The notes below the pieces were generated by a model. The model was not told the DNA's origin, did no database searches, and was given only the letters and a program-made list of their open reading frames with translations. 64,000 bases of DNA from Rickettsia endosymbiont of Gonocerus acuteangulatus (GTDB lineage: Bacteria > Pseudomonadota > Alphaproteobacteria > Rickettsiales > Rickettsiaceae): NCBI RefSeq assembly GCF_964026435.1, contig NZ_OZ032147.1, positions 1,612,001-1,676,000 of the forward strand, in the 5' to 3' direction. Below are positions 3,077-35,174 of this stretch, piece by piece. Every line of letters starts with the position of its first letter. Position 1 is the stretch's first letter. The translations under genes and the position numbers were made by a program.

Positions 3077-3201
3077 CAAAACTTACGCTATGTTATAGCA
3101 AATATGCTAAAAACTCTTATTACACAGCAATGTTTTATAGTGAAGCACTTCATAATATCCCTTAATTCATGGGCATTATATCAAACATAGCGTAAGTTTT
3201 G
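3077..3201 (+). mobile_element. 125-bp MITE, copy 1
   Basis: A non-coding 125-bp element whose two ends are inverted repeats of CAAAACTTACGCTATG, the same ends as the IS4/IS701-like element. The interior is unrelated to that IS. Near-identical copies lie at 15287, 20853 and 56551. This copy joins an IS fragment on its left to IS30 sequence on its right and has no target duplication, so one flank was lost after insertion. Confidence 0.85.
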
Positions 3202-12715: not shown

Positions 12716-13243
12716 AATCTCTTTTGGGTATATTCCCCGCCGCTTGCGGCGTAATATGGCGGAATGAGCAAATATATACATAAAAGTCATAATGTTACGG
12801 TACTGCTGTATCACATGGTATTTCCAGCAAAATATCGCCGAGCAGTGTTTGACGTATCAGTTGATCAAGTATTACGAGAAATATGTTTAGAGATAGAAAA
12901 GAGATATCAAATAAAATTTTTAGAAATAGGGGTTGATGAAGATCATGTCCATTTTTTGGTACAATCTGTACCAACCTATAGCGTAACAAAAATAGTAACA
13001 ACAATTAAAAGTGTTACAGCTCGTCAAATATTTAGACAGTGTCCACAGGTAAAGAAACAATTATGGGGTGGAGAATTTTGGACTGATGGATATTTTACGA
13101 GTACGGTAGGTAAGCATGGAAATGAGAATATGATAGGAAAATACGTAAAAAACCAAGGCAAGGAATATCAGAAACTGCATGAGGATCATCAGCTAGCTTT
13201 CTTCTAAAATACCCCGCTGCTTGCGGCGGGGATTACTTTTATT
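12716..13243 (+). mobile_element. IS200 element, copy 1
   Basis: A 528-bp element without terminal inverted repeats. It carries subterminal hairpins at both ends (CCCCGCCGCTTGCGGCG at the left, CCCCGCTGCTTGCGGCGGGG at the right) of the kind bound by TnpA of IS200/IS605. No target duplication is seen, as expected. Ends were set by comparing three copies in different flanks. Confidence 0.9.
12764..13207 (+). CDS. tnpA: IS200 transposase TnpA (Y1 HUH)
   Basis: A 147-residue Y1 transposase identical to those at 14573 and 54452. The HUH metal-binding motif is DHVHFL near residue 62, and the catalytic Tyr is expected in ENMIGKYVKNQG near residue 128. It moves the element as single-stranded circles by peel-and-paste. 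No TnpB partner is present, so this belongs to the IS200 subgroup. The three identical copies suggest recent spread. Confidence 0.95.
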   Translation: MSKYIHKSHNVTVLLYHMVFPAKYRRAVFDVSVDQVLREICLEIEKRYQIKFLEIGVDEDHVHFLVQSVPTYSVTKIVTTIKSVTARQIFRQCPQVKKQLWGGEFWTDGYFTSTVGKHGNENMIGKYVKNQGKEYQKLHEDHQLAFF

Positions 13244-14424: not shown

Positions 14425-14536
14425 AAGCACTTCATATAGCTTGTTTAGATCAAAATTTAGAATTAGTAAAATTTTTAGTAAATCAAGGTGCTGATATAAA
14501 TATACCAATTCCAAAAATAGAGGATGATAGTGTTCT

Positions 14537-15065
14537 AATAAAAGTAATCCCCGCCGCAAGCAGCGGGGTATTTTAGAAGAAAGCTAGCTGATGATCCTCA
14601 TGCAGTTTCTGATATTCCTTGCCTTGGTTTTTTACGTATTTTCCTATCATATTCTCATTTCCATGCTTACCTACCGTACTCGTAAAATATCCATCAGTCC
14701 AAAATTCTCCACCCCATAATTGTTTCTTTACCTGTGGACACTGTCTAAATATTTGACGAGCTGTAACACTTTTAATTGTTGTTACTATTTTTGTTACGCT
14801 ATAGGTTGGTACAGATTGTACCAAAAAATGGACATGATCTTCATCAACCCCTATTTCTAAAAATTTTATTTGATATCTCTTTTCTATCTCTAAACATATT
14901 TCTCGTAATACTTGATCAACTGATACGTCAAACACTGCTCGGCGATATTTTGCTGGAAATACCATGTGATACAGCAGTACCGTAACATTATGACTTTTAT
15001 GTATATATTTGCTCATTCCGCCATATTACGCCGCAAGCGGCGGGGAATATACCCAAAAGAGATTT
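14537..15065 (-). mobile_element. IS200 element, copy 2
   Basis: Same 528-bp element as copy 1 in opposite orientation, also inside the ankyrin gene about 1.3 kb downstream. Hairpins are at both ends, and removing the element restores the host reading frame exactly. Confidence 0.9.
14573..15016 (-). CDS. tnpA: IS200 transposase TnpA
   Basis: A 147-residue Y1 transposase, identical in sequence to the copy at 12764, with the HUH motif DHVHFL and the C-terminal Tyr helix intact. It starts with ATG beside the left-end hairpin and probably works on all three IS200 copies in the window. Confidence 0.95.
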   Translation of the reverse strand: MSKYIHKSHNVTVLLYHMVFPAKYRRAVFDVSVDQVLREICLEIEKRYQIKFLEIGVDEDHVHFLVQSVPTYSVTKIVTTIKSVTARQIFRQCPQVKKQLWGGEFWTDGYFTSTVGKHGNENMIGKYVKNQGKEYQKLHEDHQLAFF

Positions 15066-15286: not shown

Positions 15287-15411
15287 CAAAACTTACACTA
15301 TGTTTGATATAATGCCCATGAATTAAGGGATATTATGAAGTGCTTCACTATAAAACATTGCTGTGTAATAAGAGTTTTTAGCATATTTGCTATAACATAG
15401 CGTAAGTTTTG
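15287..15411 (-). mobile_element. 125-bp MITE, copy 2
   Basis: Same element as at 3077, inverted, with one substitution in its left terminal repeat. It is flanked by a clean 4-bp duplication AATG and interrupts the last part of the ankyrin gene. Confidence 0.88.
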
Positions 15412-19335: not shown

Positions 19336-20589
19336 ATGTTTAAGGGACAGTCTCAAATTACGCAAGAAGTAACAACAATAAAAACACCACATGAAAACTT
19401 AATAGAATTTTTAGAAACAAGAGGATTAAAGCACAAAGCAGATAACTTAAGCAAAGATGATAAATCGCTTGATCTTTCAGAGAACAACATAGGCGAAGCC
19501 GGAGCAACGGAACTAGCTAGAGTTCTAAAAGATAATTCTACTCTTACATCACTTTATCTTTCAAGTAACAAAATAGGCTCAATATTAAGAAGAATTAACA
19601 AATATCTAGTCAGAAACAAAGATTTAGCAGAGAAAAAAGCAGAAAGTTTGAATGCCGCAGGCGATGATTTATACAATCAAGAAAAATATAGTGAAGCCAT
19701 AGAAAAATATAAAGCTGCAATAAAACTTATATCATATGACCAAGATAAATTAGAATTATACGAAAAAAATCAAAAAAAAGCAGAAAAGAAATATGAAGAA
19801 CAGAAAAAACAAATACTTTCAGAAAATGACGAACTTGCTGAAATAGTAAATAAATTTTTTCACGATCCTACAGCTGTCAGTCTTTGTTATCAAATAATAA
19901 CAGATGATTTTGCTAAATTAGTTGCAGATAAATTAAAAGTTATTAAAACGATTACTGCTATCGATTTTATGGGTAGCACTATAAGTGATCAAAGTATAAA
20001 AATTATTACTGAAGCTCTAAAAACAAGTACACAACTAAAGAAACTTGATTTTAGCGGATGTGATTTAGGTGATCAAAAAATATCAATATTAGCCGAAGTT
20101 TTACAACTTAAGACTCTTACCCACCTTTGCCTTAATGCAAATTATATAGGGACTGTAGGAATAAACGCAATTATTGAAGCTTTAAAAGAAAATACCACCA
20201 TTACGCATATAGATTTAAAGCAAAATAATATAGATCAACAAAGTCAAATTATAATCGAGAAATATTTACAGCGAAATAAAAATTTATTGGAAGAACATAA
20301 TAGTTTTCAAAAGTTAGTAGATAAGTTAAACGATAAAATAGCTAACGATGCTAACATTAAAAATAAATCTATAGTAGAAGATACTATAAAGTATATAATA
20401 CAAAAAACTCCTCTTCTTACTAGGACAATCGACCGAGACCAAATAATAACTGATATACAGAAGCTTTTAGATAATAAGTTTGCAGCGTCAAAATTTATGG
20501 GCATAAAAGAAGAGCTTGAGGAATTAATAGAACAACAAAGCATAAATGATGATACTAATGTCCTTGGAATAGATAGTACGTTTGGCTGA
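19336..20589 (+). CDS. Leucine-rich repeat / TPR-like protein
   Basis: An intact 417-residue protein. Residues 40-90 carry RNase-inhibitor-type leucine-rich repeats (KSLDLSENNIGEAGATELAR). Residues 95-160 form a TPR-like, charged coiled-coil stretch (AAGDDLYNQEKYSEAIEKYK, then Lys/Glu-rich helix). More LRRs follow at about 200-310 (LKKLDFSGCDLGDQKISILA, THIDLKQNNIDQQSQIII), and then a helical C-terminus. There is no signal peptide or membrane segment. It is the best preserved of the accessory repeat proteins here and the paralogue of the broken gene at 9447. Function is unknown; protein-protein interaction is likely. Confidence 0.75.
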   Translation: MFKGQSQITQEVTTIKTPHENLIEFLETRGLKHKADNLSKDDKSLDLSENNIGEAGATELARVLKDNSTLTSLYLSSNKIGSILRRINKYLVRNKDLAEKKAESLNAAGDDLYNQEKYSEAIEKYKAAIKLISYDQDKLELYEKNQKKAEKKYEEQKKQILSENDELAEIVNKFFHDPTAVSLCYQIITDDFAKLVADKLKVIKTITAIDFMGSTISDQSIKIITEALKTSTQLKKLDFSGCDLGDQKISILAEVLQLKTLTHLCLNANYIGTVGINAIIEALKENTTITHIDLKQNNIDQQSQIIIEKYLQRNKNLLEEHNSFQKLVDKLNDKIANDANIKNKSIVEDTIKYIIQKTPLLTRTIDRDQIITDIQKLLDNKFAASKFMGIKEELEELIEQQSINDDTNVLGIDSTFG

Positions 20590-20710: not shown

Positions 20711-21888
20711 ATGTCAAAGAGGATAAAGTTGCAAGCAATACCAATTAATAGGACAGATTATTGTCAATTTTTAATAGTTAGCCAAAAGAATTATAGTTTA
20801 ACCTACTACGCTGAACATGCAAAGAAATGTAGTCATGATGTTATTAATAGATCAAAACTTACGCTATGTTATAGCAAATATGCTAAAAACTCTTATTACA
20901 CAGCAATGTTTTATAGTGAAGCACTTCATAATATCCCTTAATTCATGGGCATTATATCAAACATAGCGTAAGTTTTGAGATTTTTAAGGAATGAAAAATA
21001 TACACCTTCTTTGTTATGGGAACACATCAAGAATGATGTTATTTTTTCATCTAATGGATATACAATATTTGATGATACGGTTTTAAATAAAAGGAATACG
21101 AAGCAAATAGAAATTGCAAGATCGCAGTACAGTGGAGCTACAGGTAGAGTTACTAAAGGTATAGGAGTAGTGAGTCTGGTATATTATAACCCTGATATTA
21201 ATAAGTTTTGGGTAATAGATTATCGAATTTTTGCACCTGATCATGATGGAGCAACAAAACTAGAACACCTATTAAACATGTTAAATAATGCTGTTTATAG
21301 CAAGAAGATTCCTTTTCAAACAGTACTTTTTGACACATGGTATTCTACACACAAAATTATGCAACATGTTGACTCTTTGGGGAAATATTATTATGCCCCT
21401 ATTAAAGCCAATAGAAACGTTAGTAAAACGCACGATTCTAAACCTTATAAAGCTGTAAAAGAGTTGACATTTTCAGATGAAGAGATCAGGCATGGAGTAG
21501 AGATTCATATAAAAGGCTTTGCTAAAAATAAGCATGTTAATTTGTTTAAATTTACTGTTCCTACCAACAGAGTTGAGTATGTTGTTACCAATAACAAAAC
21601 TCAAAATCTTCTAAAGCTGCACAAGATGAGTGTGGCTTTCGATGGGTAATTGAGAGCATGCACAGAGAAATTAAGCAACTTACTGGGATAGAACGTTGTC
21701 AATGCAGGAAACAGCGTATTCAACGTAATCATATTAGTTGTGCATTTTTAGTTTGGGCATTTCTCAAAAGGACTGCAAATACAATCGGTAAAACGGTTTA
21801 CCAAATAAAGTTAGGGCTTTTAGATGACTATATGCAACAACAGCTGCGTTCTCCATCTTTACGATATTTAGAACCAAACATAGCGTAA
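20711..21888 (+). pseudogene. IS4/IS701-like transposase, disrupted
   Basis: ATG 20711 gives the normal N-terminus for 47 residues, then the frame enters the MITE. The middle part resumes at 20978 (RFLRNEKYTPSLLWEH). A one-base deletion in the AACTCAcAAATC stretch near 21603 shifts the frame before the Glu helix, which is readable again from 21658 (MHREIKQLTGIERC). Not functional. Confidence 0.9.
20853..20977 (+). mobile_element. 125-bp MITE, copy 3 (inside its presumed parent IS)
   Basis: Perfect MITE with both CAAAACTTACGCTATG ends and the 4-bp target duplication AGAT. It has landed inside a copy of the element whose ends it shares, which dates it after that IS insertion. Confidence 0.93.
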
Positions 21889-22126: not shown

Positions 22127-22957
22127 ATGCATAAATTCTTATTAACTTTAAAATTAATGCGAGCAGATAAGCCGGTAGCTTATTTACTGGTCTTCTTCCC
22201 TGCCTTATTTGGTTTACTGCTTGCCAATCCGTCTAGAGAAGATTTAATATATTTACTCCCACTATTTATCCTAGGTAGCATTACAACAAGAAGTAGCGGA
22301 TGTATTATCAATGATATATTTGACCGAAAATTCGATAAGTATGTTGCAAGGACTAAAAACCGCCCTCTAGCTAGCGGTACTTTGTCTATAAAATATGCTA
22401 TTGCTATACTTTTTATTCTTGGTGTAATCTCGCTTTTTACTTTGCTAGCTTTGAATAAGACAGCCATATATATAGGTTTTTTCGCAGTAATTATGATTAG
22501 TATATATCCGCTAATGAAGCGTGTTACTTATCTCCCCCAAGTTTTTTTAGGTTTTACATTTAATTTAGGAACGCTAATAGCCTATACAGCAGTTCAGAAT
22601 AAGCTTGATATAGCAGCAATTACGATGTATTTAGCCTGCTGTTTATGGACGATGGGGTATGATACGATATATGGATTTATGGATATAAAGGACGATAAGG
22701 AAATAGGAGTGAAATCCTTAAGCATTTATTTAGAAAATAAAGCATATAAATTTTGGCTTTATATATTTTACGTTGGATTTATTTTATTATTTATTTCAGC
22801 TGCCGGCTATAATCTAGACTATCTACCTATCCTCGGTGCTTCAACCTTATTAATACTACAAATAGCAACTTTAGACATTCATAATCCAGCTAATTGCATG
22901 ACAAGATTTAAAGCAAATCATTATGCCGGATTGCTATTAAGTTTAAGTTTCTGTTAA
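22127..22957 (+). CDS. ubiA: 4-hydroxybenzoate polyprenyltransferase
   Basis: A 276-residue integral membrane prenyltransferase of the UbiA family, with about eight or nine hydrophobic segments. The first Asp-rich motif is N62-D63-xx-D66-xxx-D70 followed by ARTKNRP, and the second lies near residues 182-190 (MDIKDDKEIG); both bind the prenyl diphosphate through magnesium. It attaches a polyprenyl tail to 4-hydroxybenzoate in ubiquinone synthesis. That fits the aerobic respiratory chain encoded further on (nuo genes). It starts at ATG 22127 and stands alone. Confidence 0.95.
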   Translation: MHKFLLTLKLMRADKPVAYLLVFFPALFGLLLANPSREDLIYLLPLFILGSITTRSSGCIINDIFDRKFDKYVARTKNRPLASGTLSIKYAIAILFILGVISLFTLLALNKTAIYIGFFAVIMISIYPLMKRVTYLPQVFLGFTFNLGTLIAYTAVQNKLDIAAITMYLACCLWTMGYDTIYGFMDIKDDKEIGVKSLSIYLENKAYKFWLYIFYVGFILLFISAAGYNLDYLPILGASTLLILQIATLDIHNPANCMTRFKANHYAGLLLSLSFC

Positions 22958-23017
22958 ATATATTGCTAATTTATATATAACTATACCCATACAAATCTTA
23001 CAAAATTTACGGCTAAT

Positions 23018-23256
23018 TTATACTTGTTCAGGAAGCACAACACCTGAGAGTACATATTCATTATTTTGAAGTGTATATTCTATTATATCAGTATCGGATG
23101 CATTCTCTAACATTTTTTGATTATACTCAAGAATTAATCTAGACTTTGGATATAACCATATTATATCTTTCATTACGAACCTTAGAGCCTCTGTAATAGT
23201 AGTTGTTCCTTTTGCATATGCTATATTTTTTTCTCATTTTGTGGATAATTTAACAT
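23018..23256 (-). pseudogene. Hypothetical gene remnant
   Basis: On the minus strand ATG at 23256 opens a frame (MLNYPQNEK) that meets a run of seven A. Adding one A joins it to a sensible frame (ITEALRFVMKDIIWLYPKSR ... YTLQNNEYVLSGVVLPEQV) ending at 23018. Length would be about 79 residues. The family is not recognised. The remaining intergenic sequence to 23378 holds nothing else. Confidence 0.35.
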
Positions 23257-24754
23257 ACACTATAATTCTATTTAAAATAGTTTAAGCAATTAAATATATG
23301 GTAACTTATTCCTAATTGTCAATTAAAATATTTTTAGCTTGGAAATTTGGAAACTCGTCTCTATTCCTTAATAATTAACTACAAACTCCTGATTCTTGCA
23401 GGTAGTTTTAATGATTTATCTTTCATGAAATTTAAAAATTGGCTAACTGAGTCTACTATATCGTCATTTTTTATATGCGGGAAGTTTAGTAATTCCTTTA
23501 AGGCTATGGTTGATGGTTTAGGTATTAACACTATACCGGCTTGAAATAAAGGCACTACTGCAGCAAATCTCGTAACTTTATCAAACTTAGGCTTAATCCC
23601 TATCACTCTAATATTGTCAGCTAAAAAACCTAAATCTTGAATTAGTTGCTGACCGCTTGCTTTGTCTTCTATCAATATAAATCTCGGCTTATATTGATTG
23701 GCTAATTTTTCTGTCAAATTCTTCAATTCAGGATAATTAATTCTTTTTCGTATTAATGATACTAAATAATATTTCTGCCCTAAAATACCCCATATAGTGC
23801 AGACGCTATAATCTGAATCTTCAAAAATTTTAATTGCCGTATCCCAGCTTTGGATGAAATAATCAAACTTCTCAGGCAAACTTTCATAAAAACTAATATC
23901 TTCGATATTAAGCAGTGATGAGCCTTGCGGTATAGGCTCTTGCAAATATTGAGCATGGTAATTATAGCTACCTATTTCATGCTCTAATTTTGCTAAGCAA
24001 TATCAGCAGGCTCTTTATAACTCTCCAATACTTCACCTTTAATATAAGAATTAGCTGTGAGTTTAAAAGAATAATCACAATCAGCAATAGCTGGAATTTT
24101 TAAATGATGCCACGCATTGCTGTTATTAAGCTGAAAATACTATAAGTAAGTAGAACAGAACCTATTTAAAATAATAAGATTTTAAATAGGTAATGATGAA
24201 CAGAAAATATAGACACTTATCTCGAGAAGAGAGATATGAGATAAAAAGAATGTATGACCTAGGAGTCAGTATTAATAAGATAGCACAACATCTTACGAGG
24301 TCTAAAAGCACTATTAGTATGGAGCTAAAAAGAAATAAGGTAAAAGATAAGTATATGCCTTGTGTTGCTCAGGAAAAATATGAAAACAGGATGTATCAGC
24401 AAGAGTTATTAAAAATAGAAAAGAACCCTATGTTGTTAGATTATATTAAAAATGCTATGATTCGCAAGAAATGGTCGCCGGATGCTATAGCCGGAAAGTT
24501 AAAACTAGACAAAAATACAGCTTTGTGTATCAGTACAGAAAGTATATATAGATTTGTTTACACTTCTGCAGTAGCAGCTAAATTAAAGTTATATAGCTAT
24601 TTACCTTCTAAAAGATATAAAAGGCAAGAAAGAGGGAAGAGGCATCAAAGGATCATTATACCACAAAGGATCTCAATACATCAGCGTGATGCAATAGCTA
24701 CGAAAAAGGTAGAAGTAGGGCATTTTGAGGCAGATCTTACATTTCATAAAGGTA

Positions 24755-25716
24755 TAGCATAAGTCATTAAGGTACTGACAGAGCGAGAGTATCATGTTAT
24801 AGTAAGCAAATATTAACAAGCATGTAAAGAGATATGGCACGAGCATATGCAATAGAACTAAGACTAAGAGTTATAAAAGCTGTAGAAGCAGGGATACGAA
24901 TAAGTAAGGTAAGTAAATTATTTAATGTAAGTCGTGATACTATATATAAATGGAAAAAATTAAAAGATAAGCAAGGTACTTTAGAAGCAGCAACTGGTTA
25001 TCAGAAAGGACATAGTCATAAGATAAAAGATTCAGAATCTTTTAAAGAATTTTTTAAAGCTAATATGAATAAAACATCAAAGGAGTTAGCAAAGCAATGG
25101 GGTAATATTGCATCTGTAACTATTTTAAGACAAATCAGAAAACTTGGCTATAGCTATAAACAAAACTCATTTTCATCCGAAAAGAGATATTAAATTAAGA
25201 AATGAATTTATAGCAAAGATACAAACCATCACAAAAGACAAATTAGTATATCTTGATGAATCTGGAATAGAGGATAATGCTTGCAAAGAGTATGGATGGA
25301 GCATTATAGGACAAAGGTGTTATGGAGAAAAGGTGTATCAACATAAATTTAGAATAAGTATGATAGCTGGTCTTTGTAATGGTAATCTTATTGCTCCTGT
25401 AATATTTGAAGGTAATTGTAATACAGAGGTCTTTAAAACTTATATTAGGGATGTATTAATTACAAAATTACAACCTGGGCAAACCGTTATTATGGATAAC
25501 ATTAATTTTCATAAAAATTCTAAAGTTAAAGAGTTCATTGAATCCGTTGGTTGTACCATATTGTATTTACCAACTTACTCTCCTGATTTAAATCCTATAG
25601 AGCATTACTGGTTTAAGATAAAAAATGAAATTAGGAAAGTTGTAGGAGATTTTGAAACATTTTATGATGCTGTTTTTAATACTATTAAATTGTCAGTATC
25701 TTAATGATTTATGCTA
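24755..25716 (+). mobile_element. IS630 type A, copy 2
   Basis: A 962-bp element with both ends (TAGCATAAG and TTATGCTA) and a clean TA duplication in the IS30 sequence GGTAATCAAAG. One base is added in the lysine run (AAACAAAACT), so the transposase is split into 24834-25193 and 25144-25704 and is probably inactive. Confidence 0.93.
24834..25704 (+). pseudogene. IS630 type A transposase, frameshifted
   Basis: The N-terminal helix-turn-helix half and the DDE half (VYLDESGIEDN, VIMDNINFHK, NPIEHYWFKIKNEI) are both complete but lie in different frames. The shift is at the AAACAAAACT run; the intact copy at 4567 has AAAAAAACT. The copy at 41898 has the same extra base, so these two share a recent ancestor. 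Confidence 0.88.
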
Positions 25717-25770
25717 TAATCAAAGTATGAATATTGGTGCACTGGTGGATAAAAAGAGTCAAAAGATTAT

Positions 25771-26882
25771 CAAAACTTACGCTATGAGTAAAAAAGTGAT
25801 AAATTATTGTAAAAATAATTAAACATGTCAAAGAGGATAAAGTTGCAAGCAATACCAATTAATAGGACAGATTATTGTCAATTTTTAATAGTTAGCCAAA
25901 AGAATTATAGTTTAACCTACTACGCGCTGAACATGCAAAGAAATGTAGTCATGATGTTATTAATAGATTTTTAAGGAATGAAAAATATACACCTTCTTTG
26001 TTATGGGAACACATCAAGAATGATGTTATTTTTTCATCTAATGGATATACAATATTTGATGATACGGTTTTAAATAAAAGGAATACGAAGCAAATAGAAA
26101 TTGCAAGATCGCAGTACAGTGGAGCTACAGGTAGAGTTACTAAAGGTATAGGAGTAGTGAGTCTGGTATATTATAACCCTGATATTAATAAGTTTTGGGT
26201 AATAGATTATCGAATTTTTGCACCTGATCATGATGGAGCAACAAAACTAGAACACCTATTAAACATGTTAAATAATGCTGTTTATAGCAAGAAGATTCCT
26301 TTTCAAACAGTACTTTTTGACACATGGTATTCTACACACAAAATTATGCAACATGTTGACTCTCTGGGGAAATATTATTATGCCCCTATTAAAGCCAATA
26401 GAAACGTTAGTAAAACACACGATTCTAAACCTTATAAAGCTGTAAAAGAGTTGACATTTTCAGATGAAGAGATCAGGCATGGAGTAGAGATTCATATAAA
26501 AGGCTTTGCTAAAAATAAGCATGTTAATTTGTTTAAATTTACTGTTTCTACCAACAGAGTTGAGTATGTTGTTACCAATAACAAAACTCAAAAATCTTCT
26601 AAAGCTGCACAAGATGAGTGTGGCTTTCGATGGGTAATTGAGAGCATGCACAGAGAAATTAAGCAACTTACTGGGATAGAACGTTGTCAATGCAGGAAAC
26701 AGCGTATTCAACGTAATCATATTAGTTGGGCATTTTTAGTTTGGGCATTTCTCAAAAGGACTGCAAATACAATCGGTAAAACGGTTTACCAAATAAAGTT
26801 AGGGCTTTTAGATGACTATATGCAACAACAGCTGCGTTCTCCATCTTTACGATATTTAGAACCAAACATAGCGTAAGTTTTG
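25771..26882 (+). mobile_element. IS4/IS701-like element, copy 5 (transposase frameshifted)
   Basis: A full-length element (1112 bp) with the 4-bp duplication TTAT in IS30 sequence. A 2-bp insertion (ACGCGCTGAA instead of ACGCTGAA near 25925) breaks the transposase after about 38 residues. The remaining 292 residues are open from 25998. Confidence 0.93.
25825..26876 (+). pseudogene. IS4/IS701-like transposase, frameshifted
   Basis: Starts as the intact enzyme (MSKRIKLQ at 25825), is thrown out of frame by the extra GC near 25925, and is open again from MLWEHIKNDVIF at 25998 to the stop at 26876 with all catalytic residues. Restart at 25998 would give a protein lacking about 57 residues. Confidence 0.85.
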
Positions 26883-27232
26883 TTATTTTAGTGCTGAATA
26901 ACTCCAAGAGAGCTACAACAGTTACCAATGGTTTTTTAAGAAAGATAAAAACTCTTCCAAATAGTGTGAGAAAGACTATTACTATGGATAATGGCAAAGA
27001 GTTTGTGGGACATGTTGCCTATAGACTATCTGGGTTTCAAACTTTCTTTTGTGATCCATACCGCCCTAGACAAAAAGCATTAGTGGAAAAAATGAATTCT
27101 ATGATTCATAGAATTTTACCTAAAAATACAGATATTACTACCGTTACACAAAGAGGTCTTGACAATGTTGCTGAGATTTTAAATAACATGCCAAGAAAGA
27201 TTTTTGGTTATAAAACCCCCAATGAAATTTGG

Positions 27233-28558
27233 GGCTCTGTCCAAATAAGTGTGGGAATTTCTCAAAGGTTATATAAAAATATAATATAACAAAAGGAGAA
27301 ATTATATGCACCAAAAACAAAATGAAGCAATGAATCAAGCGATAGATTTATTAATAAATAATGATACAGATATATCAACATTACTTAAAGAGGATGGTTT
27401 ATTAAAGCAATTAACCAAACGGCTTGTAGAGAAGGCATTGCAGTCAGAGATGAATAATCACTTAGGATATGATAAATATTGTCATACTGATAGTGATAAT
27501 GTTCGTAATGGTAAGAATGTAAAGAATCTAGTAACAAATAATGGAGTTATAGAGATTGAGGTTCCAAGGGATAGAAGTAGTACATTTGAACCTGCATTAA
27601 TTCCAAAGCGTCAAAGACGTATTGAAGGATTTGATGATAAAATAATATCGTTATACGCTAAAGGAATGAGCTTATCTGATATTAAGATTCAAATACAAGA
27701 ATTGTATGGAGCTGACGTTAGCGAAAGTTTGATAAGTCAAATTACTGATGATGTAATTGAGGATGTCAAGATATGGCAAAGCCGACCATTGGATCGAGTA
27801 TATGCTATAGTATTTTTTGACTGTTTAGTAGTAAAAGTACGTCAAGATAAACGAATTATCAATAAGTCTGTATATGTAGCATTAGGTATTGATTTATCTG
27901 GCAGGAAGGATATTTTAGGATTGTGGATCAGTGAAAATGAAGGAGCAAAATTTTGGCTTGGTAATTTTACTGAGATGAAGAACAGAGGTATGCAAGACAT
28001 GCTTATTGCTTGCAGTGATAATTTAACCGGTATGTCTGAGGCGATAGAGGCAGTTTTTCCGAAAACCGAACATCAATTATGTATTGTACATCAGATTAGA
28101 AATAGTTTAAAATATGTATCATATAAAGACCGAAAAGAATTAGCGGCTGATTTAAAGCCTATTTATACTGCTAGCACAGAGGAAGAAGCACATCTTGCTT
28201 TAGAATCTTTTGAAGCTAAATGGAGTAAACAGTATCCACAAATTGCTAAATCTTGGTATGTTCATTGGGAAAATTTAATGGTTTTTCTAGGATACCCTGA
28301 GGCGATAAGGAAAGTAATATACACAACAAATAGTGTAGAATCTGTCAATAGCCAATTACGTAAGGTTACCAAGAATAAACGGGTTTTTCCAAATGATAAT
28401 GCCGTTTTTAAGACCTTATATTTGGCAATTGATTATATGACCAAGAAATGGGCTATGCCGATTCCAAACTGGAACGCAGCTATGGCTCACTTTTTGATAA
28501 AATTTGAAGGTAGAATTTAAGCCCTATGAAAAATTTACACACTTAATTAGAAAGACTC
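27233..28558 (+). mobile_element. IS256 family element
   Basis: A 1326-bp element with imperfect 31-bp inverted ends (GGCTCTGTCCAAATAAGTGT and GAGTCTTTCTAATTAAGTGT), flanked by the 8-bp duplication AAATTTGG (27225-27232 and 28559-28566). It is the only IS256 copy in the window. Confidence 0.93.
27306..28520 (+). CDS. IS256 family (mutator-type) transposase
   Basis: A full-length 404-residue transposase. It has the N-terminal conserved region (LVEKALQSEMNNHLGYDKY), an acidic catalytic site with Asp in VYAIVFFDCLVVKVRQ, Asp in MLIACSDNLTGM, and Glu in the IYTTNSVESVNSQLRK helix, and the CIVHQIRNSLKYV signature of IS256. AGGAG lies 8 bases before ATG 27306. It appears intact and active. Confidence 0.95.
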   Translation: MHQKQNEAMNQAIDLLINNDTDISTLLKEDGLLKQLTKRLVEKALQSEMNNHLGYDKYCHTDSDNVRNGKNVKNLVTNNGVIEIEVPRDRSSTFEPALIPKRQRRIEGFDDKIISLYAKGMSLSDIKIQIQELYGADVSESLISQITDDVIEDVKIWQSRPLDRVYAIVFFDCLVVKVRQDKRIINKSVYVALGIDLSGRKDILGLWISENEGAKFWLGNFTEMKNRGMQDMLIACSDNLTGMSEAIEAVFPKTEHQLCIVHQIRNSLKYVSYKDRKELAADLKPIYTASTEEEAHLALESFEAKWSKQYPQIAKSWYVHWENLMVFLGYPEAIRKVIYTTNSVESVNSQLRKVTKNKRVFPNDNAVFKTLYLAIDYMTKKWAMPIPNWNAAMAHFLIKFEGRI

Positions 28559-29369
28559 AAATTTGGGCAGAAAATTTATAGGTTTTGTTCTACTTAGTCC
28601 TTGCATTTTCAAAGCAAATATCCAACTTAATCATCACTATGTAGACGCTGCATAACCAAAACTATCGCACCACGATTACGATTATTGAGCCTACTGACAA
28701 AGGTTTGTTCAAACCAATCTATCACTTTTTGACGTATAGCTTAATGCGATAAGGTAGTGATTTTTTAAGAGCATAGTAAACAGCATCAAAAAAGTGCTCA
28801 AAATTAGAAATAGTTTTTCTTATTTCATTCTTGATTTTAAACCAGTAATGCTCAATAGGATTTAAGTCAGGAGAGTAAGTTGGTAAAAATAAAATACTGC
28901 AACCAACAGATTCAATTAACGTTTTCACTTTTGTACTTTTATGAAAATTAATATTATCCATTACTACTATCTGACCAGCCTTTAATTCCTTGATCAATAT
29001 CTCTTGTACATAAGTTTCAAAAATGTCCTTATTACATGTCCCATCAAATATTATTGGGGCAATAATATCTTTGACACACAGCCCAGCAATCATACTAATC
29101 CGTGATTTATGTTGATAGACCTTTTCACCATAACATCTTTGACCGATAATGCTCCACCCGTGTTCTCTACAGCTATTATCTTCTATCCCAGACTCATCGA
29201 TAAATACTAAATCTTGTTTATCTATAGTTTTTAGTTTCAATATAAACTCATTCCTTAGACCAATATCCCTTTTGGGATGAAGAAAAGTTTTTTTTATAAC
29301 TATAACCTAATTTATTAAGCAATCTTGATATCGTACTTGCAGATACTTTTTGACTCCAGTTATTAGCTA

Positions 29370-30495
29370 TTAACCACCAATTAAATACCTGACTTAAGAG
29401 GCATATTTAACATTATCAGCTTGGAATAATTTTTGTATATGTTTAGGATTGTTCTGTAAGCAACGTAAATAAGATTTAAGATTGTGTTTTAACTCATCTT
29501 TTGTAAGAGGTATTTTTCTATTTACATTTCTTTTTAAGTCATTATTTAAGTATTCATCTGGATTATGTTGTGGAGTATAAGGAGGCAAAAAAAACAAAGA
29601 AATTTTATCTTTATGCTTATTTGTCCAGTTGTATACTTTTTTACTATGATGTACTTTTAAATTGTCTAATATTAAAAAGATCTTCCTTTTTGCATATTTA
29701 ACTAATCTTCTTAGAAATTCTATAAATATATCTGTTTTTAGTGTATCTTCATATAACATGAACCTTAGTTTACCATTGTTCATAATAGTTGATATCATAT
29801 TTATAGTAAATCGTTTTGATTTATGAATAACTACGGGTGTTTTGCCTTTTAAAGAATAGCTTTGTAACACCTGACATTCTGATTTTATTCCCACTTCATC
29901 ACCCCAGTGTATTTCTGCTTGTTCCATTTGTGCTTGTTTTACTATTGCAGGATATTTTTCATCTAGCCATACTTGAACTTGTTTTGGCTGTTGTTCATAA
30001 GCTAATTTCTTTGGTTTTTGTGCAGTATATCCCCATCTTCTTAAATATTCTCCAATCGTGCTTAATGGCAAAAAGAAACCACAGTATTTTTTAATTAGGG
30101 CATTAATAGATTTTCTTGACCATAGTGCAGATTTAATATTCTGCTCTTCTGGTCTAGAGTTATTTATATAATCTTGTATTTTTTTACACAGCATTGCGTT
30201 TATTATTCTTTTTTCTCCTGTCTTTCTTCCTCTAGACTTTCCAGTTACTGCATATTTATCACCTCTTCTTCTTTTGCTCACCCAGTTATTAATAGTCTGA
30301 CGTGTTACTCCTATAAGACTTGCTACATCTAATTGTTTTTCTCCTTTATCAATTGCTCTTAATGCAACTTTTCTTAAAGCTGCTTGTGCACTCGTTGATA
30401 ATGTCCTAAAATCTTCTTTTTTTAGCATGATTTTATTCTAACATTATACTTTACTATTTGCAATTATTATGTCAGGTATTTCATTGGTGGGTTAA
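29370..30495 (-). mobile_element. IS630 type C element (complete)
   Basis: A 1126-bp element with inverted ends TTAACCACCAAT and the complement of TTAACCCACCAAT, flanked by TA (29368-29369 and 30496-30497). It sits inside the type-B IS630, which sits inside the terminase gene: three levels of nesting. Confidence 0.9.
29394..30428 (-). CDS. IS630 type C transposase (intact)
   Basis: A full-length 344-residue transposase, longer than types A and B. It has an N-terminal winged or homeodomain-like HTH (LDVASLIGVTRQTINNWVSK), a linker with STIGEYLRRWGYTAQKPKK, then a DDE core with Asp in IHWGDEVGIKSE, Asp in IFLILDNLKVHHSKK, and a terminal acidic residue in TPQHNPDEYLNNDLKR. The PDEYLN form is typical of another IS630 subgroup. 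Apparently active. Confidence 0.93.
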   Translation of the reverse strand: MLKKEDFRTLSTSAQAALRKVALRAIDKGEKQLDVASLIGVTRQTINNWVSKRRRGDKYAVTGKSRGRKTGEKRIINAMLCKKIQDYINNSRPEEQNIKSALWSRKSINALIKKYCGFFLPLSTIGEYLRRWGYTAQKPKKLAYEQQPKQVQVWLDEKYPAIVKQAQMEQAEIHWGDEVGIKSECQVLQSYSLKGKTPVVIHKSKRFTINMISTIMNNGKLRFMLYEDTLKTDIFIEFLRRLVKYAKRKIFLILDNLKVHHSKKVYNWTNKHKDKISLFFLPPYTPQHNPDEYLNNDLKRNVNRKIPLTKDELKHNLKSYLRCLQNNPKHIQKLFQADNVKYAS

Positions 30496-31410
30496 TAGCT
30501 CCATGGTGGTTTTATCAAAATTTAATTCTATAAATTTTTTAAATCCCTCTATGTCTCTTATTATTCTACGATGTCCTGTATGATAACCACTTTTTGCTTT
30601 GACATCCCCAGTTTGTTTCTTTAATTTTTTCCACTCTATTATAGTCTTCCTACTAATAGAGTATATCTCTGAAGTCTCTTTTATTGTTTTACCATCTGTT
30701 AAACTTTTTATTACTCGTATTCTTAAATCGTATGAATATGCCTTTGCCATAAGTTTTTCATTTAGTATAATCCAACTCATACTATAAGTCATTACCTTAT
30801 CGCATTAAGCTATATTTTATAAGAATGTATTTGCGTAGGGTTATGCGGATTATCGATAATTAAGATATCTCCGCCCTCCCCTGTAGCTGAACCACCTACC
30901 GATGTTGTAAATCTAAAACCATTAGCAGTTGTAAGGAACTTGCTTTTCTGATTATGAGTTTTGCTAAGTATAGTATTTGGGAACAGTTCTTTATACCAAT
31001 CAGAGTTTAAAATAAATCGACAATCGAGTGAATGTTTAATACTAAGCATTTGAGAATAGCTAGCCGACATTATATGCTTAGTTGGATCAAGCCCTAATAA
31101 AAAAGCAGTCCAAGCAACACTAACACAAATAGATTTCAAACTCCTAGGCGGTATGTTAATTATTAAACGATTAATATCACCATTCTGCACAGCACTTAGA
31201 TAATCACTAATTATGTTTATGTGTTTACTAGGATAATACTCAGCACCTGGATTAATAGTATTAAACACTTTAATTATAAAACTAGGAAAATCCTGACGCA
31301 AAACTGAATTTAATAATTCTTTTGAATAGATCATAATAGATTATTGTAGTAGTCAGGGCTTCATTCCTGTCATCCTGTGGCTTGTGCCTAGGTTGTTACA
31401 TAGCTCATAT

Positions 31411-31527
31411 GTCATTCCCGCGTAGGCGGGAATCCAGTAACTAAAAGTTTTAAAAACGATAAATTTTTAAAGCTAAAAGCTCGATTTATCTCGCTTTACT
31501 CTGGATTCCCGCCTACGCGGGAATGAC
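31411..31527. repeat. Full-length palindromic repeat (RPE-like)
   Basis: Perfect 27-bp inverted arms: GTCATTCCCGCGTAGGCGGG at the left, followed by AATCCAG, mirrored at the right, with about 60 bp between them. Each arm also folds on itself (CCCGCgtaGGCGGG). The element lies between the terminase start and the DUF2155 gene. Confidence 0.85.
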
Positions 31528-31608
31528 ATAAATAATAACCTATCACAAATTATCTTTGCCATTAATCTCTCATAGTATATAATTTAAAAAATTATAATTA
31601 ATTTACTT

Positions 31609-32082
31609 ATGAAGCATTTAAAGATCATTTTAGCGTTTATTATATTTACCTGCTCGCCTATTATATTTGCAGAAGAGTTAGATTCTATTACAACTACTGA
31701 AGATATTGAGAATGATATATTTAACCTTATTAATAATGATCCGCCGGTTTTAAATTTTAATCAAGCCATTAGTAGTACAGAATTCAAAAATTGTGATAAT
31801 TGTGAGATTACTGCCTTAAATAAAACTACTGCTAAATCTGAAAAACTTACGTTTAAAGTTGGTGAAGAACAATATTTCGGTAATATAAAAATCAAAATAC
31901 ATAAATGTGTTAAAAATCTTGATCCGTATAACGAAGATAATTACATATTAATGACTATAACTGAATATATAATTGACGAAGACCCTAAATTACTTTTTCA
32001 AGGGTGGATGACCTCCGGCAGCATTTCACTTTCTACATTCGAACACCCTATTTATGAAATATTCGCTAAAGAATGTTTTTAA
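31609..32082 (+). CDS. DUF2155 exported protein
   Basis: A 157-residue protein with an N-terminal signal peptide (MKHLKIILAFIIFTCSPIIF), an acidic linker and a C-terminal DUF2155 domain (TAKSEKLTFKVGEEQYFGNI, then GWMTSGSISLSTFEHPIYE). The Cys residues after 60 and near 100 and 156 could form disulphides in the periplasm. The family is conserved in alphaproteobacteria and its role is unknown. Start ATG 31609 fits the signal peptide. Next gene begins 6 bp after the stop, so the two are probably co-transcribed. Confidence 0.85.
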   Translation: MKHLKIILAFIIFTCSPIIFAEELDSITTTEDIENDIFNLINNDPPVLNFNQAISSTEFKNCDNCEITALNKTTAKSEKLTFKVGEEQYFGNIKIKIHKCVKNLDPYNEDNYILMTITEYIIDEDPKLLFQGWMTSGSISLSTFEHPIYEIFAKECF

Positions 32083-32088
32083 GTTAAC

Positions 32089-33285
32089 ATGATAAACTAT
32101 TTTTTTATATTCTTAGTCCCTAGCCTCGGCATGGTTGCCGGCTTATCAGTCGCAGCTACTGTTACGGTGTTTTTGTTGAGTATTATTTGCATGTCCATGT
32201 CATTCCTGCGAAAGCAGGAATCCAGTAGAAATTTATTTTTCTGGATCCCGTGGACACGCCACGGGATGACACTACAGTATAAAACAGAACTACTATTCCC
32301 TAGCTGTTGCTTGATATCCTGTTTATTTGCAATTAAACCTACCAACAGCCTAATTAATTTTGTTCAAGTCTTTACAATCTTATTTCTTGGCTTTGTTGTT
32401 AGTAATTTCAAACCATTTCAAAATCGCCCACAGCTTAAAAAAGCTTTAATATTTGGTACTCTTACGGCAATTTTATTATTCTTTGTCGAATATTTTTCTG
32501 ATGGCTTTTTAACTAGAATATTTAAAGCAAATTTTAACCTTTATATGTTAGATCGAGGTTGTGCTTTACTTTCAATTACTGCGTGGGTAGTAATAGCTAT
32601 TTTAATTTATGATAAAAAATATTATCACGCTCTAATATTATATATCTTAGTACTTTATTTATTAAGTATCTCTGATAGTTTAGCAAGTTTTCTAGGATTT
32701 AGTTTAGGCGGAATAGTGTTTATTTTAGCAAGGCTTGTAAAATCGATATTTTCTAAATTGATAATATTCGGTCTAATAACAGGTTCGTTATTGTTTCCGA
32801 TCATAGCCGGACAAATTAATCCTAAGGAGTTATCAGATAAATATTTATCTACCCACCCATCAGCGGCACATCGTTTATTTATCTGGCATTTCGTTGCAAA
32901 TAAAATTGCTGAAAAACCGCTTATGATTAATGGCTTTAATTCTTCTAAATATATCCAAGTTAAAGACAGCGAAATGATTGATTATAAAAGTAAAAAATGG
33001 CATCCTTTACCGCTTCACCCGCATAACAATATACTACAAATTACTCTTGAGCTAGGGCTAGTGGGATTAGCTTTATTCTTAAGCTTGGTTTACAAATACC
33101 TTAAACAAATTGGTAATATAGGAAATGATATTTTTAGCGCAATTTCTTATGCATGTTTCATAAATTACTATATTATCGGCATGATTTCATATAATGTTTG
33201 GCAAATATGGTGGGTGGCAAGCAGCATTTGGGTACTAATTTTAATGAAGTTATTAGTCAAACCCGATATTGTCATTGATAAATAA
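32089..33285 (+). CDS. O-antigen ligase / polymerase-like membrane protein
   Basis: A 398-residue membrane protein with roughly ten hydrophobic segments. The large loop near residues 250-320 contains STHPSAAHRLFIWHF and LPLHPHNNILQITLELG; the HPHN and preceding Arg/His residues are hallmarks of the WaaL/Wzy family, which joins or polymerises surface polysaccharide on undecaprenyl carrier. Residues 37-61 (MSFLRKQESSRN to GMT) are read from an RPE inserted in frame between two membrane segments and are not native. It probably acts in LPS O-antigen assembly. Confidence 0.8.
   Translation: MINYFFIFLVPSLGMVAGLSVAATVTVFLLSIICMSMSFLRKQESSRNLFFWIPWTRHGMTLQYKTELLFPSCCLISCLFAIKPTNSLINFVQVFTILFLGFVVSNFKPFQNRPQLKKALIFGTLTAILLFFVEYFSDGFLTRIFKANFNLYMLDRGCALLSITAWVVIAILIYDKKYYHALILYILVLYLLSISDSLASFLGFSLGGIVFILARLVKSIFSKLIIFGLITGSLLFPIIAGQINPKELSDKYLSTHPSAAHRLFIWHFVANKIAEKPLMINGFNSSKYIQVKDSEMIDYKSKKWHPLPLHPHNNILQITLELGLVGLALFLSLVYKYLKQIGNIGNDIFSAISYACFINYYIIGMISYNVWQIWWVASSIWVLILMKLLVKPDIVIDK
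32199..32270. repeat. RPE inserted inside a coding gene
   Basis: A 72-bp palindromic insert (24 codons), GTCATTCCTGCGAAAGCAGG ... ACGCCACGGGATGAC, which keeps the ligase-like frame open. It encodes the CHSR/FLRKQESS-type peptide typical of such repeats. Confidence 0.85.
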
Positions 33286-33322
33286 TGTTATTTGGGGTAA
33301 ATATAGAATATAGTGTTTTTAT

Positions 33323-33435
33323 GTCATTCCCGCGTAGGCGGGAATCCAGAGAAAAACCATTAATACAGCAAATTTTTAAAATTAAAGCTCGATTTATCTC
33401 GCTTTATACTGGATTCCTGCTTTCGCAGGAATGAC
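33323..33435. repeat. Palindromic repeat upstream of nuoA
   Basis: Inverted arms GTCATTCCCGCGTAGGCGGG...CCAG and its mirror with the CCTGCTTTCGCAGGAATGAC variant. It fills most of the space between the ligase-like gene and nuoA, ending 31 bp before the nuoA start. Confidence 0.85.
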
Positions 33436-33465
33436 AATGAGAAATTTAAAACAACAAAAAAATAT

Positions 33466-33840
33466 ATGCTGCAGAATTCAGAACTCTTACAAGAATATTT
33501 ACCTATTGCTATATTTTTTGGTATTGCAACATTAGTATCTAGCTTAATAATGATTCTACCGAATTTATTAGCTGCTAAAAAATATAATAAAGATAAATTA
33601 GAGCCTTACGAATGCGGATTTGAACCTTTCGACGATGCCAGATCAAAATTTGATATACGATTTTATCTAGTTGCTATTTTATTTATTATCTTTGACCTTG
33701 AAATTACGTTTTTAGTTCCGTGGGCTATTAGCCTTGGAACAATAGGCAAAATAGGCTTTTTCTCAATGATGTTCTTCTTATTCGTACTTACTATAGGATT
33801 TGTATATGAATGGAAGAAAGGAGCTTTAGATTGGGAGTAA
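33466..33840 (+). CDS. nuoA: NADH-quinone oxidoreductase subunit A
   Basis: A 124-residue membrane subunit of respiratory complex I with three transmembrane helices and the conserved loop KLEPYECGFEPFDDARSKFD. The Cys and acidic residues of that loop lie near the quinone-binding module. Length is normal for the family. It opens the nuoABC-x-DE cluster. A palindromic repeat separates it from nuoB. Confidence 0.96.
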   Translation: MLQNSELLQEYLPIAIFFGIATLVSSLIMILPNLLAAKKYNKDKLEPYECGFEPFDDARSKFDIRFYLVAILFIIFDLEITFLVPWAISLGTIGKIGFFSMMFFLFVLTIGFVYEWKKGALDWE

Positions 33841-33867
33841 AAATCAACTAATATTATTAAGTGCTAT

Positions 33868-33983
33868 GTCATTCCCGCGTAGGCGGGAATCCAGCATAAA
33901 GCGAGATAATATCAACCTTTTAATTAAAAAAACTTGCTGCTTTTATATTTATTTTTCTGGATTCCCGCCTACGCGGGAATGAC
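33868..33983. repeat. Palindromic repeat between nuoA and nuoB
   Basis: Both arms (GTCATTCCCGCGTAGGCGGG and mirror) are exact, with about 60 bp between them. It lies inside an operon-like gene series and would form a large hairpin in the transcript. Confidence 0.88.
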
Positions 33984-34036
33984 ATAGTAGAAAGAATAAC
34001 ACATATTCACTATATTTAACTTATATAAGAATAAAA

Positions 34037-34561
34037 ATGCATAATAATTTTTATCAGGAAGACGAATTGCTGAATAATGAGCTTTCAAATCGAGGGTTCT
34101 TATTAACCAAAGTCGATGATGTCATCGGCTGGGCAAGGAGCAATTCCCTATGGCCTATGACCTTTGGGCTTGCTTGTTGTGCAGTTGAGATGATGCAAGC
34201 AGCAGCAAGTAGGTATGATATGGATCGCTTTGGCATGCTGTTTAGACCAAGCCCAAGACAGTCCGATCTTATGATAGTTGCGGGAACGCTGACTAACAAA
34301 ATGGCACCAGCATTACGCAAAGTATACGATCAAATGGCTGAGCCTAAATGGGTACTTTCAATGGGTAGCTGTGCTAATGGCGGGGGATATTATCACTTCT
34401 CTTATTCAGTAGTCCGAGGCTGCGACCACATTGTACCGGTTGACGTATATGTCCCTGGCTGCCCTCCTACAGCGGAAGCTTTAATTTACGGACTTATGCA
34501 ATTACAAAAGAAAATCAAACGCACTACAGGTTTTAAATATGACGCTAGAAAAAATCATTGA
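34037..34561 (+). CDS. nuoB: NADH-quinone oxidoreductase subunit B
   Basis: A 174-residue subunit that holds the terminal 4Fe-4S cluster N2 of complex I. Cluster ligands are Cys47-Cys48 (LACCAVEMM), Cys112 (GSCANGG) and Cys142 (VPGCPPT). It passes electrons to ubiquinone at the interface with NuoD. The gene overlaps nuoC by 23 bp, which suggests coupled translation. Confidence 0.97.
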
Positions 34562-35174
34562 GAAGCTTGCCGCTAAATCAAGTATATTGATAAACCCCAT
34601 CACAGTTAAGGATTACCTAGCGTATAAAGTTGAGCCGAATTTTTTACTACCTTTCTTAAAAACTTTAAAAGAATCAGAAGAACTGCGTTTTACTGTACTA
34701 ACCGACTTATTTGGTAGCGATTTTCCTGAACGATGTCATTCCCGCGGAGGCAGGAATCCAGAAAAGACAACCTTAATAAATAAGAGGTTCGAAGTAGTAT
34801 ATAATTTATTAAGCTTAAAATTAAATAAACGTCTTATCATTAAAACTTATGTGTCTGAAAAAGAAAGCGTACCATCTATAATCAATATATTTAATGCTGC
34901 TTGTTGGTATGAGCGTGAAGTTTATGATATGTATGGCATAAATTTTGACGGCAATGATGATAAACGGCGAATACTTACCGATTATGAATTTGAAGGGCAT
35001 CCTTTGCGTAAAGATTTCCCGTTAACTGGATATACGCAAGTTAAATATGATGAACAGGCAAAAAAAGTAGCTTATGAACCAGTCAATTTAGATATAGAAT
35101 ATCGTGAGTTTGATTTTAGCTCACCTTGGCACAGCCCTACTTATGTACTACCTGGTGATGAGAAGGCTAAATGA
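34539..35174 (+). CDS. nuoC: NADH-quinone oxidoreductase subunit C (with RPE insert)
   Basis: A 211-residue 30-kDa subunit of the complex I connecting arm. The family signature is at residues 125-165 ([20 protein letters not shown], then [13 protein letters not shown]). Residues about 66-80 ([12 protein letters not shown]) come from an RPE fragment inserted in frame between FPER and [10 protein letters not shown]; family members without it pass directly from one to the other. The insert lies in a surface loop region before a beta strand and is presumably tolerated. It starts within nuoB and overlaps the next gene by 4 bp (ATGA). Confidence 0.95.
34735..34775. repeat. Half-RPE inside nuoC
   Basis: GTCATTCCCGCGGAGGCAGG followed by AATCCAG matches one arm of the 115-bp palindromes between the nuo genes. 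The second arm is absent. Confidence 0.8.

What the first reader, a model, noticed from the sequence alone, without database searches (positions are those of the whole stretch)
23379..31334. Terminase gene opened by transposons nested three deep
A single phage terminase gene is spread over 8 kb. IS30 entered it (AAGC duplication) and then took IS630-A (TA), an IS4/IS701-like element (TTAT) and IS256 (AAATTTGG). Separately IS630-B entered (TA) and then received IS630-C (TA). Each junction is exact, so the order of events can be read: the terminase first, the outer IS next, the inner ISs last. Such a dense and fully legible nest of five families in one dead prophage gene is unusual.
Basis: seen in the sequence. 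Interest (0 to 1): 0.7.

Follow-up and report, generated by a model that had tools for sequence, protein, structure and literature searches.

The report
Transposon-shredded gene-transfer-agent terminase in Rickettsia
A DNA-packaging gene that sits at the same place in many Rickettsia chromosomes has, in this transposon-filled genome, been broken into three pieces by six jumping genes, some inside others; the pile-up is real but ordinary for this genome, and the gene more likely belongs to an old domesticated gene-transfer particle than to a dead prophage.

Summary
One large-terminase gene is split into three pieces at 23379-31334 by six insertion sequences: IS30 (holding IS630-A, an IS701-family element and IS256) and IS630-B (holding IS630-C). 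Target duplications are as stated. Searched apart, the pieces tile residues 1-463 of an intact 465-residue ortholog. Corrections: four IS families, not five; two IS layers inside the gene; only outer-before-inner order can be read. Nests are common in this 1.98-Mb Rickettsia genome: ten random 20-kb stretches hold ten interrupted IS copies, one of them three IS deep. The dead-prophage reading is not supported. The gene is single-copy and follows the same chromosomal genes (nuoCBA, Wzy_C, DUF2155) in 11 of 11 other Rickettsia loci read. In five other Rickettsiales genomes it adjoins gene transfer agent (GTA) genes, in one heading a nearly full GTA-like cluster. It is therefore most likely the packaging motor of the scattered Rickettsiales GTA. 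This genome shows no portal, capsid, GTA_TIM or Rcc01695-family match. Codon comparison suggests the gene was constrained until recently. A side result may be new: the Rickettsiales GTA terminase lies far from the terminase of other alphaproteobacterial GTAs.

The parts
30813..31334 (-). terminase piece 1 (N-terminal part)
   Evidence: matches residues 1-173 of the intact ortholog in G003 at 97%; single place in the genome
28612..28736 (-). terminase piece 2 (middle), contains an in-frame stop
   Evidence: matches residues 175-215 at 95%
23379..24131 (-). terminase piece 3 (C-terminal nuclease part), one change of frame inside
   Evidence: matches residues 215-257 and 258-463 in two frames; PF17289 Terminase_6C 1.1e-10; TIGR01630 2.2e-20
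24132..28611 (+). IS30 copy, interrupted three times; TSD AAGC
   Evidence: uninterrupted copies in the window at 13359-14424 and 52073-53138
24755..25716 (+). IS630-A inside IS30; TSD TA; transposase frame broken (119 + 186 aa; another copy in the window has 289 aa)
25771..26882 (+). IS701-family element inside IS30; TSD TTAT
   Evidence: NF049921 IS701 family transposase above cut-off
27233..28558 (+). IS256 inside IS30; TSD AAATTTGG; 404-aa transposase open
28737..30812 (-). IS630-B, interrupted by IS630-C; TSD TA
   Evidence: uninterrupted copy in L048
29370..30495 (-). IS630-C inside IS630-B; TSD TA; 344-aa transposase open; the only copy found in the genome
   Evidence: nearest relative found on Candidatus Megaera polyxenophila plasmids, 78%
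22127..22957 (+). UbiA prenyltransferase gene, next gene on the far side of the terminase
   Evidence: PF01040; adjacent in G003, about 6 kb off in G014, not seen near it in the other nine loci
31609..32082 (+). DUF2155 gene, next to the start of the terminase
   Evidence: PF09923; same neighbour in 11 of 11 loci
32089..35174 (+). Wzy_C gene, then three NADH dehydrogenase subunit genes (called nuoA, nuoB, nuoC from recall)
   Evidence: PF04932, PF00507, PF01058, PF00329; same order in 11 of 11 loci

Best explanation
The locus is the large-terminase gene of the Rickettsiales gene transfer agent, a domesticated, vertically inherited packaging motor that in Rickettsia sits apart from the other GTA genes in a fixed chromosomal slot. 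In this IS-overrun lineage, near the bellii group, the gene lost its function recently. IS30 and IS630-B inserted into it, other IS copies then inserted into those, and it also gained a stop and a frame change. The nest needs no special mechanism: once the gene is not needed, insertions into it cost nothing, and each IS copy is itself a further harmless target. Shown: junctions, duplications, tiling on one ortholog, fixed slot, GTA neighbours in relatives, no match to other GTA families in this genome, low dN/dS. Inferred: that the intact gene packages DNA in GTA particles, that loss of the GTA came first, and neutral accumulation.
For: Pieces tile one intact ortholog. Each long piece has one place in its own genome. 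Same upstream gene order in 11 of 11 other Rickettsia loci, six of them named. Homologs, intact or broken, in 49 of 57 relatives. In G056 the same type of terminase heads portal, protease, capsid, connector, Rcc01695-family, baseplate-hub and GTA_TIM-type genes in GTA order. It lies beside a portal gene in G036 and beside a portal match at the edge of the stretch in G027 and G023, and beside connector and Rcc01695-family genes in G024. Terminase and the Rcc01695 family (TIGR02217) co-occur: 43 both, 6 terminase only, 1 family only, 7 neither, of 57. In G000 there is no match to portal, capsid, GTA_TIM or TIGR02217. dN/dS of pieces against G003: 0.012/0.288 and 0.048/0.430. Nests elsewhere in the genome. 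GTA genes including terminase are described in print as scattered and vertically inherited in Wolbachia, and at conserved places in Orientia (PMC9203015; PMC10732058; passages).
Against: No particle or packaging has been shown for any of these genomes here. The terminase is not of the same lineage as the terminase of other alphaproteobacterial GTAs, so membership rests on neighbourhood and co-occurrence. Six of 57 relatives have the terminase without a TIGR02217 match and one has the reverse. Of eight non-Rickettsiales genomes with this type of terminase whose surroundings I read, seven show no GTA match near it, so the lineage is not confined to GTAs. Related genomes are not independent data. 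A XerD-like tyrosine recombinase gene follows the terminase in 8 of the 11 loci, which a prophage reading could use. Low dN/dS would also fit a phage gene kept for another reason.
Confidence: 0.82

Rival explanations
1. One reading: the gene is the last remnant of a dead prophage that was invaded by IS elements.
For: Terminase families are phage families. Phages hold homologs of the intact ortholog at up to 37% identity over most of its length, and a XerD-like recombinase gene follows the terminase in 8 of 11 relatives (PF00589).
Against: The genes on either side in the window are core genes, with the same upstream order across the genus. One copy, homologs in 49 of 57 relatives, next to GTA genes in five genomes. 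Low dN/dS.
Confidence: 0.1
2. The nest is partly an assembly artefact: near-identical IS copies were joined wrongly and the interleaving is not real.
For: The elements of this locus have 265 matches in the genome, cross-matches between IS630-A and IS630-B included: the classic setting for misjoins. No reads were available.
Against: Each junction carries the duplication expected for its family on both sides. The three gene pieces lie in gene order and tile one ortholog. The flanks agree with relatives. One contig.
Confidence: 0.05
3. The locus is a true hot spot: the terminase or the IS30 copy attracts IS elements more than other dead DNA does.
For: Four insertions into IS copies in about 6.7 kb, against ten in 200 kb of random stretches. 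IS256 lies in the 3' part of other IS30 copies too, at other positions (L035, L036, L046).
Against: The site was picked because it was dense. Two of the four inner insertions are IS630 elements in TA, a target that is everywhere. Similar nests occur at other loci.
Confidence: 0.08

Closest known systems
Scattered GTA genes of Rickettsiales (Wolbachia, Orientia, Rickettsia)
   Same: Terminase, portal, capsid/protease, TIM-barrel and tail genes at several chromosomal places (PMC9203015 and PMC10732058, passages); same layout in G003
   Different: Here the terminase is shredded and the other GTA families tested give no match in the genome
RcGTA-like (type I) GTA clusters of other alphaproteobacteria
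   Same: Homologous portal, capsid, protease, Rcc01695-family, hub and GTA_TIM proteins
   Different: Their terminase is on the other side of a long, 100/100-supported split; no phmmer match between the L003 terminase and any ORF of the seven clusters, though profile and single-row cross-matches show distant kinship
IS-driven genome expansion in bellii-group Rickettsia, e.g. rMd of the lacewing Mallada desjardinsi
   Same: Very many IS copies; 1,564 IS and 54.81% of the chromosome in rMd (PMC13375240, passages)
   Different: This genome is smaller (1.98 Mb); the IS families at this locus are IS30, IS630, IS701 and IS256, while in rMd the passages name IS3 as prevalent (506) and IS30 as rare (7) among four families compared

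Membership tests
Alphaproteobacterial GTA (RcGTA-like) | Terminase linked to HK97-type portal, protease and capsid plus Rcc01695-family, hub and GTA_TIM genes | tested here: met
   In relatives: nearly full order in G056 (L160; no match for two tail-gene queries between the tail terminator and the Rcc01695 gene; that genome is listed as 70% complete); partial in G036, G024, G027, G023. In the window's own genome the other families gave no match.
Alphaproteobacterial GTA (RcGTA-like) | Terminase orthologous to g2 of the RcGTA-like cluster | tested here: not met
   Separate sides of the tree; no phmmer match; g2-type query matches 1 of 58 genomes, weakly. The g2-type query hits the terminase of 6 of 6 further clusters. 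So it is filed as the Rickettsiales GTA terminase, not as g2.
Alphaproteobacterial GTA (RcGTA-like) | Vertical inheritance at a fixed chromosomal place | tested here: met
   Same upstream order in 11 of 11 Rickettsia loci; the 12 rows of family f1 form one clade with 100/100 support
Alphaproteobacterial GTA (RcGTA-like) | Particles that carry random host DNA | not testable with these tools
   needs particles and sequencing of protected DNA
Prophage remnant | Further phage genes or attachment sites next to the terminase | tested here: not met
   Nearest genes are UbiA, DUF2155, Wzy_C and NADH dehydrogenase genes; attachment sites were not searched for; a XerD-like gene follows in 8 of 11 relatives but was not found in the window
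IS30 family | IS30 transposase, inverted ends, short target duplication | tested here: met
   NF033563 on both halves; ends 20 of 25 alike, AAGC
IS630 family | IS630 transposase, TA duplication | tested here: met
   NF033545 on A, B and C; TA on both sides
IS701 family | IS701-type transposase, 4-bp duplication | tested here: met
   NF049921 over its cut-off; TTAT; duplication length for the family is recalled
IS256 family | IS256 transposase, 8-9 bp duplication | tested here: met
   NF033543; AAATTTGG; duplication length for the family is recalled

The most novel reading that the evidence does not exclude
The Rickettsiales gene transfer agent runs on a packaging motor from a different terminase lineage than the other alphaproteobacterial GTA clusters tested here, although head, portal and tail genes are homologous. 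In the common history of these GTAs the motor was exchanged once and has since been inherited mostly vertically. The window then shows the end stage in one lineage: the other GTA genes gone, the motor gene last and now filled with transposons.
Probability: 0.5. Interest if true: 0.55.

Novelty: new member of a known kind. Interest (0 to 1): 0.33.

Why it matters
The nest itself is one more case of IS accumulation in an IS-rich Rickettsia genome. What adds value is the identity of the target: a gene with homologs in 49 of 57 relatives, apparently part of a gene transfer agent, seen near the point of loss together with the absence of the other GTA families tested. It gives a recent loss to set beside intact relatives. 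It also points to a terminase lineage that separates the Rickettsiales GTA from the well-studied Rhodobacter type, which bears on whether GTA parts can be exchanged.

Tried and rejected
Prophage remnant: rejected on slot, neighbours and copy number.

The whole composite moving as a unit (IS30 with its passengers copied elsewhere): looked for in the listed own-genome matches. Two merged matches of IS30 plus IS256 turned out to differ (L035: insertion about 9 bases off; L036: an IS701 fragment follows IS256), and L033 has IS630-A and IS701 close together outside IS30. The list was cut, so unlisted matches were not seen.

Gene = g2 of RcGTA: my first idea, rejected.

IS630-C as a member of the resident IS630 set: rejected; single copy, 23-28% identical to the other listed IS630 matches of the genome.

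Dating the insertions by IS divergence: not pursued, because most copies seen are 99-100% alike and give no order.

Rfam on 23000-32000: no match at the gathering score.

Class-wide search with the intact terminase: 25 of 142 genomes, own included. Of eight non-Rickettsiales contexts fetched (L142-L148, L153; L145 is only 7.2 kb), one (L142) holds GTA-type tail genes near the terminase and seven show no GTA match. So this terminase lineage also occurs outside GTAs.

Which terminase lineage is ancestral was not tested, nor trees of portal or capsid. The dN/dS comparison used the N piece and the in-frame part of the C piece only; the N piece was not compared with G014.
Full report
Where it is. 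The window is bases 1,612,001-1,676,000 of a single-contig genome of 1,983,518 bases. A scan of named genomes with the C-terminal piece returned six loci, all Rickettsia, and 22 same-genus genomes were searched beside it, so the host is a Rickettsia. Its closest relatives in that search are G003 and G014 (90 and 89% on this piece). From memory, the contig length of G014 is that of R. bellii RML369-C, so I take the genome to be of or near the bellii group. Because the genus holds listed pathogens, I mended and joined nothing. The gene pieces were searched apart.

The observation. IS30 copies without passengers lie in the window at 13359-14424 and 52073-53138, and the first of these encodes an unbroken 324-residue transposase. 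An uninterrupted IS630-B copy is in L048. The three gene pieces match residues 1-173, 175-215 and 215-463 (the last in two frames) of an unbroken 465-residue ortholog. By NCBIfam the elements are IS30, IS630 (three), IS701 and IS256, so four families. IS630-A and IS630-B are 74% alike in DNA. IS630-C is another branch, found once. Its nearest relatives found are on plasmids of Candidatus Megaera polyxenophila (78%). In the whole-genome search 11 of 58 genomes, own included, had a match, the best outside G000 at 36% over part of the protein. It is probably a recent arrival.

What order can be read. Each outer element preceded what sits inside it. The order among IS630-A, IS701 and IS256, and between IS30 and IS630-B, is not recoverable from position. 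Copies are too alike for dating.

Is the nest unusual? In ten random 20-kb stretches of the same genome the six elements cover 41,697 of 200,000 bases, and 50,280 with two more elements added. Those stretches hold ten interrupted IS copies, nine of them filled by another catalogued element. In L119 an IS30 copy holds IS701 sequence that itself holds IS630-A, three IS deep, though the innermost junction is not clean: the IS701 halves overlap by about 50 bases. The window has six interruptions, four of them here. The locus is denser than the random stretches, but of the same kind. A 2026 paper reports IS-driven expansion in a bellii-group Rickettsia, with 1,564 IS making up 54.81% of the chromosome (PMC13375240, passages).

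What the broken gene is. It is a large terminase (PF17289 and TIGR01630 on the C-terminal piece; PHROG 38 best on the intact ortholog). The N-terminal piece alone matched no Pfam or NCBIfam model. It is not in a prophage as far as the neighbours tell: UbiA on one side, and DUF2155, Wzy_C and NADH dehydrogenase subunits on the other. The order from the NADH dehydrogenase genes to the terminase holds in 11 of 11 other Rickettsia loci read (five chosen by me from terminase matches, six from the named scan). On the far side a XerD-like gene follows in 8, ubiA in 2 (in G014 about 6 kb away), and neither in L064. Homologs, intact or broken, occur in 49 of 57 relatives. Rickettsia G003 carries a portal gene (with one stop inside the match), a fused protease-capsid with connector, Rcc01695-family and hub genes, and GTA_TIM genes at three other places. 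In G056, of another family of the order, the same type of terminase stands at the head of a nearly full GTA-like cluster. In G036 it lies next to a portal gene, in G027 and G023 next to a portal match at the edge of the stretch, and in G024 next to connector and Rcc01695-family genes. Across 57 relatives the terminase and the Rcc01695 family go together (43 both, 6 terminase only, 1 family only, 7 neither; Fisher 4.6e-5). Within 22 genus genomes an intact terminase goes with an intact capsid (7 both, 1 terminase only, 2 capsid only, 12 neither; p 0.0015), GTA_TIM (7, 1, 1, 13; p 0.0004) and portal (5, 3, 1, 13; p 0.011) (sets typed by hand). Relatedness makes these p-values too small. Published work already calls such genes in Wolbachia and Orientia GTA genes, terminase included (PMC9203015; PMC10732058; passages only).

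State in this genome. Portal, capsid, GTA_TIM and TIGR02217 models give no match at E 0.001 in G000. The terminase pieces, compared with G003, show dN 0.012 and dS 0.288 (N piece, 172 codons) and dN 0.048 and dS 0.430 (C piece, 188 codons). G003 against G014 in the same C part gives 0.016 and 0.205. The gene was thus probably under constraint for most of the time since these lineages parted, and its loss is recent on that scale.

A side result. The terminase of GTA clusters in other alphaproteobacteria is of another lineage. GTA_TIM matched in 9 of 96 genomes of the class, and I fetched seven of these clusters. The intact Rickettsia terminase has no phmmer match at E 10 in any of the seven. 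The g2-type query finds the terminase of six of six further clusters but only one weak match in 58 genomes of Rickettsiales. In the tree the two types are separated by long branches with 100/100 support on each side. The eight phages in it were chosen as good hits of one type or the other, four each, so their grouping is by design; the other-GTA rows are not resolved as a clade apart from their phages. The 17 Rickettsiales rows form one group with one outside genome (L142) among them, at 96/96. That genome also has GTA-type tail genes near its terminase, so some transfer between orders is possible. Distant kinship of the two types shows: g2-type query on L165 at 1.5e-5 and on L147 at 7e-7, and PHROG profiles that match both. 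A 2022 paper states that RcGTA and RcGTA-like terminases form one clade; it has no word beginning 'Rickettsi' in its main text (PMC9662315, passages). I found no paper that notes a different terminase in Rickettsiales in searches, of which I saw listings and, for some papers, passages. Lang and Beatty 2007, cited there for Rickettsiales, was not looked up or read.

Mechanism, in steps. Shown: clean insertions with family-typical duplications; nesting; single gene; fixed slot; GTA context in relatives; no match to partners here. Inferred: loss of need for the GTA, then unpunished insertions into the motor gene and into the insertions. I put this at about 0.82. Prophage remnant about 0.10, assembly error 0.05, special hot spot 0.08; the last two could also be partly true beside the first.

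Verdict. Confirmed observation, ordinary kind. The identity of the gene changes the story from a dead prophage to a domesticated packaging gene near the point of loss, and the odd terminase lineage is the part worth following.

Noticed in passing
L160 (G056) 13611-14999 against L134-L140: The terminase of Rickettsiales GTA-like clusters and that of other alphaproteobacterial GTAs lie on separate sides of the terminase tree although the head genes are homologous.
   Followed up: partly
window 3077-3201, 15287-15411, 20853-20977, 56551-56675: A 125-bp repeat whose ends are the 16-base ends of the IS701-family element: a likely non-autonomous derivative, once inside an IS701 copy; 14 copies in the window plus 200 kb.
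   Followed up: partly
window 12719-13242, 14538-15061, 54417-54940: A 524-bp IS200-like element (GC-rich repeats near its ends, no clear duplication; family name recalled, not tested), 17 copies in the window plus 200 kb, four of them inside IS30, IS630-A or IS701 copies.
   Followed up: partly
window 29370-30495: IS630-C was found once in the genome with an open 344-aa transposase; nearest relatives found are on Candidatus Megaera polyxenophila plasmids (78%), which hints at a recent arrival from another Rickettsiales.
   Followed up: partly
L035 1501-3228, L036 305-3255, L046 1385-3493: IS256 sits in the 3' part of other IS30 copies too, at other positions or in other settings, so IS30 seems a repeated target of IS256.
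   Followed up: no
window 31408-31530: A perfect inverted repeat (30 bases a side) between the terminase start and the DUF2155 gene, of the look of a Rickettsia palindromic element (name recalled); related copy at 32197-32227.
   Followed up: no
window 19336-20589: A 417-aa protein with leucine-rich and TPR-like repeats.
   Followed up: no
L125 1255-4712: An IS701 copy split by 2,336 bases that match none of the eight catalogued elements.
   Followed up: no
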